Shown here in pieces: positions 51,442-55,962 of a stretch of DNA of 64,000 nt. Source of the DNA: Stutzerimonas stutzeri (GTDB lineage: Bacteria; Pseudomonadota; Gammaproteobacteria; Pseudomonadales; Pseudomonadaceae); assembly GCF_024448955.1 (NCBI RefSeq), contig NZ_JAMOIH010000003.1, positions 62,001 through 126,000 of the forward strand, written 5' to 3'. Numbering within the stretch: position 1 is the first letter of the stretch; every line of letters begins with the position of its first letter. Below the pieces are notes generated by a model. That model saw only the letters and a list, made by a program, of their open reading frames with translations, was not told where the DNA came from and ran no database searches. The position numbers were made by a program, and so were the translations under genes.

Positions 51442-51885
51442 TCAGGGCAAGGCTTTCTCGGCATAGGTGCGAGTGGGCAGACCCAGCTGAGAGCGAAAGC
51501 TCTCCATGTCGAACATAGTGCAGATACTGCGAATCTGCCCGCTAGGGGTCAGGGTCCAGAACGCCATGGCCGAGATGCTCAGGACCTTGTCGCTCGGCGG
51601 ATAGCCGAGCGCCGGATTCTCGATGGTGCCGATCAGCGTGCTCCAGGTGACGACCTTGTCGCCCTCTGCGACGCATTCCTCGATCACCACTTCGAGATCG
51701 GGCATGGCTGCGCGAATCTGAGTGACCATATTCGCGAACTCGGCGCTGGCCATGGGGTGGCCAACGAAGGAGCTTTTGTAGAGAAAATCCTTGCTGTGCA
51801 GCTGCTCGGCCAGGGCCATGTGGCCGCGGTTCCAGGTCAGGTCTATGTGCTTGCGAACCAGTTTCTTGCTGCCGTCCGGTGACAT
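51442..51885 (-). CDS. SnoaL-like / NTF2-fold protein
   Basis: A 147-residue NTF2-like fold protein of the SnoaL/ester-cyclase type (KKLVRKHIDLTWNRGHM at the N-terminus, then IEECVAEGDKVVTWSTLIGT and the strand IRSICTMFDMESF). Substrate and reaction are unknown; members range from cyclases to ketosteroid isomerases. It is monocistronic, convergent with the antiporter operon and tandem with phoQ 81 bp away. Confidence 0.7.
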   Translation of the reverse strand: MSPDGSKKLVRKHIDLTWNRGHMALAEQLHSKDFLYKSSFVGHPMASAEFANMVTQIRAAMPDLEVVIEECVAEGDKVVTWSTLIGTIENPALGYPPSDKVLSISAMAFWTLTPSGQIRSICTMFDMESFRSQLGLPTRTYAEKALP

Positions 51886-51966
51886 CTGAAGCGTCCGTAG
51901 GTGGCGGAAAGCCGAACTTTAGCAGCAGCCACGGCAAGCGGGCAGAGCGGGATGTCCTTCATCGGC

Positions 51967-53364
51967 TTATTCGAGCGGCAATCGCAGCCGGAACGCAGCG
52001 CCGCCAAGGCTGGAATCATCGAGCCTGAGCTCACCGCCGTAGCTGTCGAGAATGTCCTTGACCACCGCCAGACCGATGCCCTGGCCGGGATGCTGGGCGT
52101 CCAGCCGCTCGCCGCGACGCAGGATGCGAGCACGCTGGTCGACCGGAACGCCGGGGCCGTCGTCTTCAATACTCAGCAACAGGTACTCGGCGTCTTCCTG
52201 CAGGCTGATGCGTACCTGATGCAGACAGAGCCGGTAGGCGTTTTCCAGCAGATTGCCCAGCAGCTCCATGAGGGCGCCTTGCTCCAGCGGCAGGGTGGCG
52301 CTCGGTGGAATGTCTAGGTCGACCCGCACGTGCTTGTCCTGATAGACCTTGTCCAGTGTGCTGCACAGGCGCACCAGCAGCGGCTGCAACTCAACTCGGT
52401 GCCGCACCAGGCCACTCTGGCCCAGGCTCGCACGTTGGAGTTGATAGCCGATCTGCTGGCTCATGCGTTCGATCTGCGCGTGCATGACGCGCGCCTGCTC
52501 GCGGTTGTCCGGTTGCGCACTGATCACCTCGCCCACGCTTTGCAGCACGGTCAATGGTGTTTTCAGGCTGTGGGCCAGATCGCCCAAGGAATTGCGGTAC
52601 TGCTCACGCTGACGGCGTTCGCCATCGAGCAGCCGGTTCAGCGAGCGGGTCAGGCGTAGCAGTTCCATTGGATGCTGATCGCTGAGTCGATCCAGCCGTC
52701 CATTCTCGACCTGGTCCAATTCATGGCTCAGGCGCTTCAACGAGCGAAAGCCCCAGGTCAGGCCCAGCCAAAGCAGCGTCAGCAACACCAGCAAGCCCCC
52801 GCCAAGCCAGAGATAGAGCTGTTGACGGAATTCCTCGAAAAGGCTGCGGTATTCGCTGGTCGGTTGCATGGTGACGAAGCTGAAGGCCTGGCGATCGTCG
52901 TTGGTCAAGCGCAGCTCGACGTCGTAGACGAAGTATTCAACGCCCTCGATGTCACGCACTCGCTGGAATTCTGTGACGTCACCGTGCAGGCGCGGCCGGT
53001 AGTCGATGCTTTCATCTTCGGCCGAACGCGACTGCCACAGCCGGTTGCCCTGCGGGTCGTAGATATAGCCGAGCAGCTTGGCATCCGGCAGATCGAACTC
53101 CTCGTCCGGCAGCCGATCCGGCATTACCAGCTGCCCTTCTTCGATGCGCGAAGCGGTAATCAGCGTGTTGGCATCAGCGGCCAACCGCTCTTCTATGACG
53201 CGCTCGAAGGCGAGGCTGAACGCAGCCTGCAGCACCGGCAGCAGGGCGAGCATGAACAGGACGGCCAGGCAGGTCGCGCCCAGCATGAGGCGCAGGCGCA
53301 GCGAAAGACTGCCGTTGCGTGAGGCTCGCAGCTCAACCAGCCAGCGGCGCCAGCGCAGGCTCAT
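51967..53364 (-). CDS. phoQ: sensor histidine kinase PhoQ
   Basis: A 465-residue kinase with membrane segments (about 25-48 and 183-203) flanking an acidic periplasmic sensor domain that includes clusters such as DEEFD and AEDESID suited to divalent-cation sensing. Then come HAMP, HisKA with GDLAHSLKTP (His265) and HATPase_c. This is the PhoQ type that responds to low Mg2+ and cationic peptides. The start overlaps the phoP stop by 4 nt. The gene itself is intact, but its cognate regulator is frameshifted in this sequence. Confidence 0.87.
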   Translation of the reverse strand: MSLRWRRWLVELRASRNGSLSLRLRLMLGATCLAVLFMLALLPVLQAAFSLAFERVIEERLAADANTLITASRIEEGQLVMPDRLPDEEFDLPDAKLLGYIYDPQGNRLWQSRSAEDESIDYRPRLHGDVTEFQRVRDIEGVEYFVYDVELRLTNDDRQAFSFVTMQPTSEYRSLFEEFRQQLYLWLGGGLLVLLTLLWLGLTWGFRSLKRLSHELDQVENGRLDRLSDQHPMELLRLTRSLNRLLDGERRQREQYRNSLGDLAHSLKTPLTVLQSVGEVISAQPDNREQARVMHAQIERMSQQIGYQLQRASLGQSGLVRHRVELQPLLVRLCSTLDKVYQDKHVRVDLDIPPSATLPLEQGALMELLGNLLENAYRLCLHQVRISLQEDAEYLLLSIEDDGPGVPVDQRARILRRGERLDAQHPGQGIGLAVVKDILDSYGGELRLDDSSLGGAAFRLRLPLE

Positions 53365-54037
53365 CGGCAGCGCTCGGTGAAGAGATAGCCCAGGCCGCGA
53401 ACGGTATCGATGGGTTTCAGCCCGCCCTGTGCTTCGAGCTTGCGCCGCAAACGCCCAACCAGCACCTCGATGACATTGGCATCGCGCTCGTTGTCGTCGG
53501 GGTACAGCTGTTCCATCAGGCGTTCCTTCGCTACCACCTGCTGTTGGTGGCGCATCAGGTATTCGAGGATGCGATATTCAAGGCGGTCAATGCCAGGGGT
53601 TCGTCATTGACCAGGGCCTGCTTGCGGTTGAGGTCGAGTTTCAGCGCCCCGGCCTCGATGCTGGCTTGGGTGAAGCCGGACGAACGACGCAATAGTGCAT
53701 TGAGCCGCGCCTCTAACTCCTCGAACTGGAACGGCTTGACGACATAGTCGTCAGCGCCGGCTGCGAGCCCCTCGACCTTATCCTGCCAGTTGCCGCGCGC
53801 AGTCAGGATGAGGATGGGAAAGCGTTCGCCATTGCTGCGCAGCTGACGGATCAGGTCCAGGCCGCTGATACCCGGCAGGCCGAGATCGACCACCGCCAGG
53901 TCATGATTGAATTCGCGCGTCTGGTAGAGCGCCTCCTCGGCATTGGCCACCGCATCGACCACATGACCGCTTTCGCTCAGGCGAGTCAACAGGTGGTGGC
54001 GCAACAGCGCCTCGTCTTCCACCACCAGCACTTTCAT
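53361..54037 (-). pseudogene. phoP: response regulator PhoP, interrupted by a one-base frameshift
   Basis: The first 150 codons encode an intact receiver (Asp51 in AVVDLGLPG, KPF lysine loop) and the start of the effector domain to PLALTAL. Then the frame shifts: the coded chain ends NIASSNT, 160 residues in all. Restoring one base near 53579 (TTGAATAT read as TTGGAATAT) gives LTALEYRILEYLMRHQQQ and joins the remaining winged helix (53361-53555), which includes the DNA-recognition helix VIEVLVGRLRRKLE and ends 4 nt into phoQ. As written, the DNA-binding domain is lost. It is either a real inactivating mutation or a sequencing error. Confidence 0.85.
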
Positions 54038-54057
54038 TTGCGGCTCCTATCATGCAA

Positions 54058-54080
54058 ACGGCCGGGACGATCCCGGCCGT
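54058..54080. terminator. perfect hairpin between oprH and phoP
   Basis: Ten-bp perfect arms ACGGCCGGGA/TCCCGGCCGT around a 3-nt loop, in the 69-bp gap. On the operon strand only two T residues follow, so it is likely a partial terminator or an mRNA-stabilising stem that keeps oprH output above phoPQ. Confidence 0.6.
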
Positions 54081-54106
54081 GGTCCTGTTAAGGCAAGCCG
54101 TGTGGC

Positions 54107-54709
54107 TTAGAAGTGATAGTTCACGCCCAGGTAGGCCTGCTTGCTGCTGTGTACGTCGATCGAACCAACCTTGCCGACGCCGCGCTCGGACACCTCGGTA
54201 CCGGCGTTGCTGCGCAGGTAACGGTAGCCGGCTTCGATCGACGCGTTGTTGCCGAGCTCCTGCAGAACGCCGGCCTGCAAGCCAACCAGGTAGCCGATGT
54301 CGCTGTCACGGCTGTAGCCGCTGGACTCGTTCTCCAGCTTGGTCAGACCGGCGCTGGCGCCGCCGAACAGACGGGTGGTATCACCGACCGGCAGGAACAT
54401 GTCGTAGCTGCCGATCAGGTTCTGCTGACGCAGCTTGAGTGCGCTGCCGTAGTCGTCGGAGACGTTTTCGTAGGTGGCATAGTAGCGCGCCTCATCGGTC
54501 ATCTGACCGGCACGGATACCCCAGGTGCCGCTGTTCTTGATGATGTCATCGAAGCGGTCTTGGCCCATGTTCTGCTTCAGGGTGCTGGAGCGGTCGATAT
54601 TGACCGTGCTCTTGCCCCAGGTGAGACCGGCGAAGTTCTCGGCGGCATGGGCGCCCAGGGTGAAGAGGCTCAAGCCGGTGGCGATGGCGAGGGTGTGCAG
54701 CTTGTTCAT
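54107..54709 (-). CDS. oprH: outer membrane protein OprH
   Basis: A 200-residue outer membrane protein, the same length as P. aeruginosa OprH, which it closely resembles from memory: signal peptide to GAHA, mature start AENFAGLTWG, then GTWGIRAGQ, RYYATYENVSDD and KLRQQNLIGSYD, ending in Phe. It should form an eight-stranded beta-barrel that binds LPS and stabilises the outer membrane at low Mg2+. It heads the oprH-phoP-phoQ operon and is preceded by a four-unit PhoP-type direct repeat. Confidence 0.92.
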   Translation of the reverse strand: MNKLHTLAIATGLSLFTLGAHAAENFAGLTWGKSTVNIDRSSTLKQNMGQDRFDDIIKNSGTWGIRAGQMTDEARYYATYENVSDDYGSALKLRQQNLIGSYDMFLPVGDTTRLFGGASAGLTKLENESSGYSRDSDIGYLVGLQAGVLQELGNNASIEAGYRYLRSNAGTEVSERGVGKVGSIDVHSSKQAYLGVNYHF

Positions 54710-54764
54710 GTGTTGCTCCTTTGCAGGCGTGGAAAAGTCACGTCTGCATCCTGCCTGCGACCCG

Positions 54765-54803
54765 CTGAACGACGCCTGAACCCTGGCTGAACCTGAGCTG
54801 AAC
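54765..54803 (-). promoter_or_regulatory. four-copy PhoP-type direct repeat upstream of oprH
   Basis: On the oprH strand the hexamer GTTCAG occurs four times at exact 11-bp steps (plus-strand CTGAAC at 54765, 54776, 54787 and 54798). Two hexamers separated by 5 bp are the usual Pseudomonas PhoP box. The array lies 56-94 bp before the oprH start. Confidence 0.8.
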
Positions 54804-54845
54804 GACTGGCCAAGACAGCGCAGCGAGGGCTGCGCCGTTGACCCG

Positions 54846-55856
54846 CTAACGCCCGCGGCGTCCCAGCAAGGCGACCAACGCCGCTGCGCCCACCGCCACG
54901 GCCACCGTTGTGGCGACGGGATGTTGCGTGGCGCGGGTGTAGAGGCTGCGCGTCAGCACCATTCCTGGATAATCGCCGCTGGCCTTGCCGTCGCCGGCGC
55001 TGCCGACATCACTGGCGTGGAGTGCGCCGCGAGGGTGCCGGTCCGGGCGTCCGCTCTGGATGGCATCGTAGACAAAGGTGCGGTTGATCCAGTCGGCCAG
55101 GCGCGGGGCATTCTGCGCCAGCTTTGACAGCAACTTGGCGTTGCCGATATAGACGTCGCGCTGCGGATGCTCAGCCGCATGGAGAATCGCCTGTGCGACG
55201 ACTTCCGGCGCGTAGACCGGCGGAGGAAACACCGGTGCGCTGGGTAGCTGATTTTTCGAATGATCCATGAACTGGGTGTCAGTCGAGGACGGGCGTACTA
55301 GCGTCACCGATACCGGCGTTCGGGACTTCTGCAGCTCGACGCGAAGCACGTCGGTCATGGCCTTGATAGCATGCTTGCTGGCGCTGTAGCTGGCATGAAA
55401 CGGCAAGGCATTGGCGGACTCCACGCTGCCGATGTTGATCAACGCTCCGCCTTTTTCGCGCAGATGTTTCACGGCGATGGACGACCCGTAGTGCGTGCCC
55501 CAGAAATTGGTTTGCATGACTTGGTAGTGGTCTTCATCGCTGACCTCGTCGAAGCGCCCCCAGACCGAACTGCCGGCATTATTGATCCAGGTATCGAAGC
55601 CGCCGAAATGTTCGATGGTCTGCCGGGCGACGTGTTCGAGCTGCTCGCGTTCACCGACATCAGCCATCACATGCAGGACCCGATCGCCCGCGTTCAGGTC
55701 GCGCTGGATATCCGCCAGGGCGAGTTCGTTGCGTGCCACCAGCACAACCCGGGCGCCTCTTTCTACGGCGAGGCGGGCTGTCGCCAGGCCGATCCCGCTT
55801 GAGGCGCCGGTAATGACGATGACTTGTTCATGCAAGGGTTTCAGGGAAATGCGCAT
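54846..55856 (-). CDS. short-chain dehydrogenase/reductase with C-terminal membrane helix
   Basis: A 336-residue SDR. The cofactor motif TGASSGIG begins at residue 16, NNAG is at 92-95, and the catalytic Ser144, Tyr157 and Lys161 are in GSVES and YSASK. The C-terminal 25 residues form a hydrophobic segment (TTVAVAVGAAALVALLG) ending RRGR, a membrane anchor. The substrate is unknown. A longer frame to 55904 exists; ATG 55856 has GGAG upstream. It lies 106 bp after the deacetylase gene on the same strand. Confidence 0.83.
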   Translation of the reverse strand: MRISLKPLHEQVIVITGASSGIGLATARLAVERGARVVLVARNELALADIQRDLNAGDRVLHVMADVGEREQLEHVARQTIEHFGGFDTWINNAGSSVWGRFDEVSDEDHYQVMQTNFWGTHYGSSIAVKHLREKGGALINIGSVESANALPFHASYSASKHAIKAMTDVLRVELQKSRTPVSVTLVRPSSTDTQFMDHSKNQLPSAPVFPPPVYAPEVVAQAILHAAEHPQRDVYIGNAKLLSKLAQNAPRLADWINRTFVYDAIQSGRPDRHPRGALHASDVGSAGDGKASGDYPGMVLTRSLYTRATQHPVATTVAVAVGAAALVALLGRRGR

Positions 55857-55962
55857 GGGATCTCCTCGGTAGCAGCAACGATGGGTTGGCTCGGTAGAAG
55901 CCATAGGCCCGTTGCAGGTTCCGAGCAGACGATGGATGGCGATGCTCGTCAGAGAGCGCCGG

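What the first reader, a model, noticed from the sequence alone, without database searches (positions are those of the whole stretch)
53361..54037. phoP carries a one-base deletion that removes the DNA-binding domain
The receiver (160-residue product) and the winged helix (53361-53555) lie in different frames, and insertion of one base near 53579 restores a standard OmpR-family chain. oprH and phoQ are intact. If real, the strain keeps a functional sensor and a receiver without its effector, which should disconnect OprH and LPS remodelling from Mg2+.
Basis: seen in the sequence. Interest (0 to 1): 0.7.

Follow-up and report, generated by a model that had tools for sequence, protein, structure and literature searches.

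The report
Frame-broken phoP beside intact phoQ
In this Stutzerimonas genome the gene for the magnesium-response regulator PhoP is split by a frame break while its sensor and its target gene look intact; it is probably a recent, ordinary loss of function in one strain, or an assembly error.

Summary
In detail: on the minus strand phoP reads as a 160-aa receiver ORF (53555-54037) and a 64-aa winged-helix ORF (53361-53555) in another frame; oprH and phoQ are open. By its relatives' names the genome is of the Stutzerimonas stutzeri group. Of 56 genus genomes 38 hold phoP; 36 of these are unbroken, this genome and G054 (break elsewhere) are not. Of 80 named loci, partly the same genomes, 78 have an open 225-aa frame. 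In about 304 kb shared with each of two relatives, phoP is the only one of 223 conserved ORFs split over frames in this genome, so the assembly is not generally frame-broken; one local error cannot be excluded without reads. The winged-helix piece has no amino-acid change on this branch and four GTTCA repeats upstream of oprH are kept: recent, or not real. oprH, phoP and phoQ occur together in 38 of 56 genus genomes and none is found in 17 (16 near-complete); G048 has a clean empty site, so the block is dispensable in this genus. Low interest.

The parts
53555..54037 (-). phoP, receiver part, 160-aa ORF (its last residues are out of frame)
   Evidence: PF00072 at residues 3-112; best NCBIfam hit PhoP NF008078, below cut-off as a fragment
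53361..53555 (-). phoP, winged-helix part, 64-aa ORF in another frame; lacks the first 17 positions of Trans_reg_C
   Evidence: (PF00486 18-77 of 77)
53579..53594 (-). interval in which the reading frame changes
   Evidence: overlapping tblastn segments (contig C3 coordinates minus 62000), residues repeated
53553..53557 (-). TGATG: stop of the receiver ORF overlaps the ATG of the winged-helix ORF; 52 of 80 named loci have the same five letters there, so it arises from codon use
51967..53364 (-). phoQ sensor kinase, 465 aa, open; its ATG overlaps the phoP stop
   Evidence: best match PDB 1id0, PhoQ histidine kinase
54107..54709 (-). oprH, 200 aa, open
   Evidence: PDB 2lhf, outer membrane protein H1, E 1.8e-69
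54766..54803 (-). four GTTCA repeats at 11-base spacing upstream of oprH, likely PhoP binding sites (that identity is recalled)
   Evidence: same distances in L039; at least two GTTCA within 250 bases upstream in all 65 named loci with an oprH match; no chance expectation was computed
51442..51885 (-). downstream flank gene, present at the empty site of G048
54846..55904 (-). upstream flank gene (dehydrogenase-like by eye, not searched), present at the empty site of G048

Best explanation
A recent, strain-level loss-of-function allele of phoP in a Stutzerimonas stutzeri-group bacterium. Shown: the frame change, the truncated winged helix, open oprH and phoQ, kept upstream repeats, and intact copies in nearly all relatives examined. 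Inferred: translation stops after the receiver, so no full PhoP is made; PhoQ can at most phosphorylate a receiver that cannot bind DNA; oprH and phoQ then run at basal level whatever the Mg2+. Some ribosomes may restart at the TGATG overlap, giving a short winged-helix piece that lacks the start of its domain and is probably inactive, though the restart could keep phoQ translated.
For: Frame change in the assembly. 36 of 38 phoP-bearing genus genomes unbroken; in a family sample 101 of 102 matching genomes (138 searched) have the receiver in an open frame of at least 225 aa. phoP is the only one of 223 conserved ORFs split over frames in this genome, against 1 of 220 in G041 and 6 of 220 in G024. 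PhoB and OmpR are intact in this genome, and 11 of its 12 Trans_reg_C matches lie in open frames of 224-367 aa. No long homopolymer near the break (longest run 4 bases in 53540-53620). The genus tolerates absence of the whole block. Other phoP breaks with phoQ open: S. xanthomarina PX_067 (L052, same contig as G054) and Pseudomonas graminis PDD-13b-3 (L090).
Against: No reads were seen; one break in about 234 kb of examined coding sequence is also compatible with a rare assembly error. No decay: 0 replacement against 4 silent changes in the winged-helix piece, 2 against 3 in the receiver; phoQ 9 against 30, still constrained. The laxer filter flagged 13 of 247 ORFs in this genome (18 of 248 in G041, 18 of 212 in G024): 10 of the 13 are single-frame ORFs with stops that I take for antisense frames without proof, one is phoP, one is a further 117-aa ORF split over two frames, one a partial match.
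Confidence: 0.6

Rival explanations
1. Assembly or sequencing error at one place; the strain has a normal PhoP.
For: The closest held genome G041 (97% over the gene) is intact; no sign of relaxed constraint in the winged-helix piece; draft assembly of 33 contigs. Such errors seem to occur in data of this genus: in G012 phoQ is split (L060) and OmpR is matched only from residue 103.
Against: Only 1 frame-split ORF in 223 and no long homopolymer at the site.
Confidence: 0.35
2. A split, two-chain PhoP made by stop-restart coupling at TGATG that still works.
For: TGATG overlap at 53553-53557; the second ORF runs to the phoP stop that overlaps the phoQ start.
Against: The second ORF lacks the first 17 of 77 Trans_reg_C positions; 52 of 80 named loci have the same letters at that place, although phoP is open in 78 of these 80, so it is no adaptation.
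Confidence: 0.02
3. Programmed ribosomal frameshifting yields full PhoP.
For: None beyond the two overlapping frames.
Against: Nearly all relatives examined encode the protein in a single frame; the longest run in 53540-53620 is 4 bases.
Confidence: 0.02

Closest known systems
PhoP/PhoQ two-component system with oprH (Pseudomonas aeruginosa type operon; recalled)
   Same: Gene order oprH-phoP-phoQ; OprH matched to PDB 2lhf, PhoQ best matched to PDB 1id0, and the NCBIfam PhoP model is the best for both phoP pieces
   Different: phoP is split over two frames here
Broken phoP beside open phoQ in Stutzerimonas xanthomarina PX_067 (L052) and Pseudomonas graminis PDD-13b-3 (L090)
   Same: phoP frame broken, phoQ open over its length
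   Different: Breaks lie near receiver residue 43 and after residue 134, so they are separate events; L090 has no oprH match

Membership tests
OmpR/PhoB-type response regulator PhoP | Complete receiver domain | tested here: met
   PF00072 positions 1-110 of 111
OmpR/PhoB-type response regulator PhoP | Complete winged-helix effector domain in the same chain | tested here: not met
   Different frame; PF00486 only 18-77 of 77 in the ATG-started ORF
OmpR/PhoB-type response regulator PhoP | PhoP equivalog model at curated cut-off | tested here: inconclusive
   Best hit for both pieces but 182.6 and 57.1 bits against 336; pieces were scored apart, and no intact relative was scored
PhoQ sensor kinase | Full-length kinase, PhoQ-type | tested here: inconclusive
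   465 aa open; HisKA and HATPase_c met; the PhoQ model is the best hit at 283.4 bits, below its cut-off of 497; best PDB match 1id0 PhoQ
OprH | Sequence relation to OprH outer membrane protein | tested here: met
   PDB 2lhf, E 1.8e-69; no Pfam or NCBIfam family at E 0.001
PhoP regulon | oprH induced at low Mg2+ through PhoP | not testable with these tools
   GTTCA repeats present; function recalled, not measured

The most novel reading that the evidence does not exclude
Loss of PhoP while PhoQ is kept is a recurring first step, perhaps selected, toward loss of the whole oprH-phoP-phoQ block in Pseudomonadaceae: three separate phoP breaks with phoQ open were met here, in this genome, in S. xanthomarina PX_067 and in P. 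graminis PDD-13b-3.
Probability: 0.1. Interest if true: 0.4.

Novelty: new member of a known kind. Interest (0 to 1): 0.15.

Why it matters
If real, the strain is a natural phoP-null with an intact sensor and kept target sites, useful for asking what PhoQ and OprH do without the regulator. Broader and better supported is that oprH-phoP-phoQ comes or goes as a block in Stutzerimonas (38 of 56 genomes with all three).

Tried and rejected
Tried: a genus-wide DNA search, PhoQ, receiver and OprH protein searches, a family sample, PhoB and OmpR as control regulators, an ORF-by-ORF comparison with G041 and G024, branch-wise silent and replacement counts, and an empty-site comparison.

Rejected: general poor assembly quality (1 of 223 ORFs split; the four stretches of contig C6 fetched had almost no counterpart in the relatives' stretches, so only contig C3 was tested); programmed frameshifting. 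The excess of phoP breaks over the control regulators, leaving out G012, is 2 of 37 against 0 of 108, Fisher p 0.064: suggestive only, and PhoB and OmpR may be less dispensable. With G012 kept in, controls show 1 break in 110. The phoQ counts were wrong because of an alignment gap and were replaced. In one search my ORF picker returned a partner kinase, an antisense frame or a doubtful start for several of the seven loci; only L004 (PhoB by my reading) and L006 (OmpR by my reading) were used; those two names were not checked against a library.

All seven literature requests failed, so nothing here on PhoPQ biology in P. aeruginosa, nor the identity of the GTTCA repeats, comes from a paper; it is recalled. 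No claim is made about what is or is not in print. The assembly quality of the P. graminis genome was not tested; of G054 only PhoB and OmpR were seen to be intact.

Full report
Where it lies. The window is bases 62001-126000 of contig C3 of a 4.35-Mb, 33-contig genome. The nearest named PhoQ relative is that of Stutzerimonas stutzeri SD25545, 96% identical (L039, which warns that records of the window's own genome may be left out). The nearest held genome over phoP is G041, 97%; its contig length and positions equal those of L039, so it is the same record.

The observation. On the minus strand the order is oprH (54709-54107), phoP receiver (54037-53555), phoP winged helix (53555-53361), phoQ (53364-51967). 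The two phoP pieces lie in different frames; G041's PhoP aligns with residues 1-153 in one and 149-225 in the other, so the frame changes within 53579-53594. The receiver is complete (PF00072, positions 1-110 of 111); the 64-aa ORF covers PF00486 positions 18-77 of 77. OprH matches PDB 2lhf, and the kinase matches PDB 1id0, PhoQ, best. For both phoP pieces the NCBIfam PhoP model is the best hit, below its whole-protein cut-off.

Relatives. Of 56 genus genomes, 38 hold a full-length phoP match; the matched stretch is 678 bases in 36 and 677 in this genome and G054. Of the 29 other genus loci fetched (L010-L038) 28 have an open 225-aa frame; the 8 not fetched have the receiver in open frames of 229-268 aa. 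Of 80 named loci from the PhoQ search (L039-L118, some of them the same genomes; the 80 best of 113 relatives) 78 have an open 225-aa frame. The exceptions are S. xanthomarina PX_067 (L052, same contig as G054/L031, break near receiver residue 43) and P. graminis PDD-13b-3 (L090, break after residue 134); both have phoQ open. In a family sample, which includes 16 of the genus genomes, 102 of 138 matched the receiver, and 101 of these have it in an open frame of at least 225 aa, this genome being the exception with 163. That column counts from stop to stop, so an upstream extension could hide a late break.

Error or mutation. About 304 kb of contig C3 is covered by each of G041 and G024. Of 223 conserved, non-overlapping ORFs examined, one is split over frames in this genome: phoP. 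For G041 it is 1 of 220, for G024 6 of 220. Nine of the 223 are full length but contain a stop in this genome (8 of 220 and 20 of 220 in the others); I take most of these for antisense frames, unproven. A laxer filter flagged 13 of 247 in this genome, including one further frame-split 117-aa ORF, 18 of 248 in G041 and 18 of 212 in G024. Two control regulators: PhoB is matched over its length in 55 of 55 genomes that have it, OmpR in 54 of 55; G019 (73% complete) has neither, and the exception is G012, whose OmpR is matched only from residue 103. In G012 the phoQ match also starts only at residue 103, while in the other 37 it starts at residue 18 or before; the same record, RM2 (L060), has phoQ in two pieces. 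So that assembly looks error-prone. Outside G012, phoP is broken in 2 of 37 against 0 of 108 control copies, Fisher p 0.064. The longest run of one base in 53540-53620 is 4. None of this replaces reads.

Age. On this branch, judged against G041 and G024, the winged-helix piece has 4 silent and 0 replacement changes, the receiver 3 and 2, oprH 3 and 0, phoQ 30 and 9. Four GTTCA repeats 11 bases apart sit upstream of oprH at the same distances as in L039; all 65 of 80 named loci with an oprH match have at least two GTTCA within 250 bases upstream, most at 11-base steps. So apart from the break the operon shows little sign of decay: the break is recent, or not real.

The block. PhoQ (E 1e-60) and the PhoP receiver (E 1e-50) are found in the same 38 of 56 genus genomes. 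OprH (E 1e-8) is in those 38 and, as a 75-residue match, in G022, which is 71% complete. In 17 genomes none of the three was found at these cut-offs; 16 of them are near-complete and one (G019) is 73% complete. I looked for both flanking genes in 12 genomes, 9 of them without the block: the upstream gene is in 3 of the 9, a close match to the downstream gene in 5, both in 1, G048. There they stand 220 bases apart against 2963 here, with no tblastn match to oprH, phoP or phoQ pieces in the fetched 3.5 kb and no GTTCA on the operon's strand of the gap. The genomes without the block include ones with PhoB 99% identical to this genome's (G045, G042, G048) and ones with PhoB at 93% (G018, G021, G029), which hints at several losses or gains (no tree was built).

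How it works. Shown: no single frame encodes PhoP here. Inferred: a receiver without effector is made, the promoter sites stay free of PhoP, and oprH-phoQ run at basal level whatever the Mg2+. The stop of the first ORF overlaps an ATG (TGATG) in the frame that runs to the phoP stop, which itself overlaps the phoQ start; restart there could keep phoQ translated. 52 of 80 named loci carry the same letters at that place, so this is codon usage, not design. A working two-chain PhoP is unlikely, since the second ORF lacks the start of its domain.

Verdict. Observation confirmed. An ordinary loss-of-function allele (0.6) or an assembly error (0.35); low interest.

Noticed in passing
G048:C1:320388-320607 (in L209) against window 51886-54848: Clean empty site: the flank genes stand 220 bases apart without oprH, phoP, phoQ; 38 of 56 genus genomes have all three, 17 have none found.
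   Followed up: partly
L060 (S. stutzeri RM2, same record as G012): phoQ lies in two pieces meeting near residues 104-107, and OmpR in G012 is matched only from residue 103: the assembly looks error-prone.
   Followed up: partly
L090 2328-2989: Pseudomonas graminis PDD-13b-3 has a broken phoP (open frame 146 aa) and open phoQ, and no oprH match.
   Followed up: partly
L087, L088, L090, L092, L094-L097, L099, L102, L106, L110, L114, L116, L118: 15 of 80 named phoPQ loci have no oprH match by tblastn at E 1e-5; several have titles of the P. syringae group.
   Followed up: no
G041:C2:244097-244779 (C3:28569-29255 of this genome): A 228-aa ORF of this genome is split over two frames in G041.
   Followed up: no
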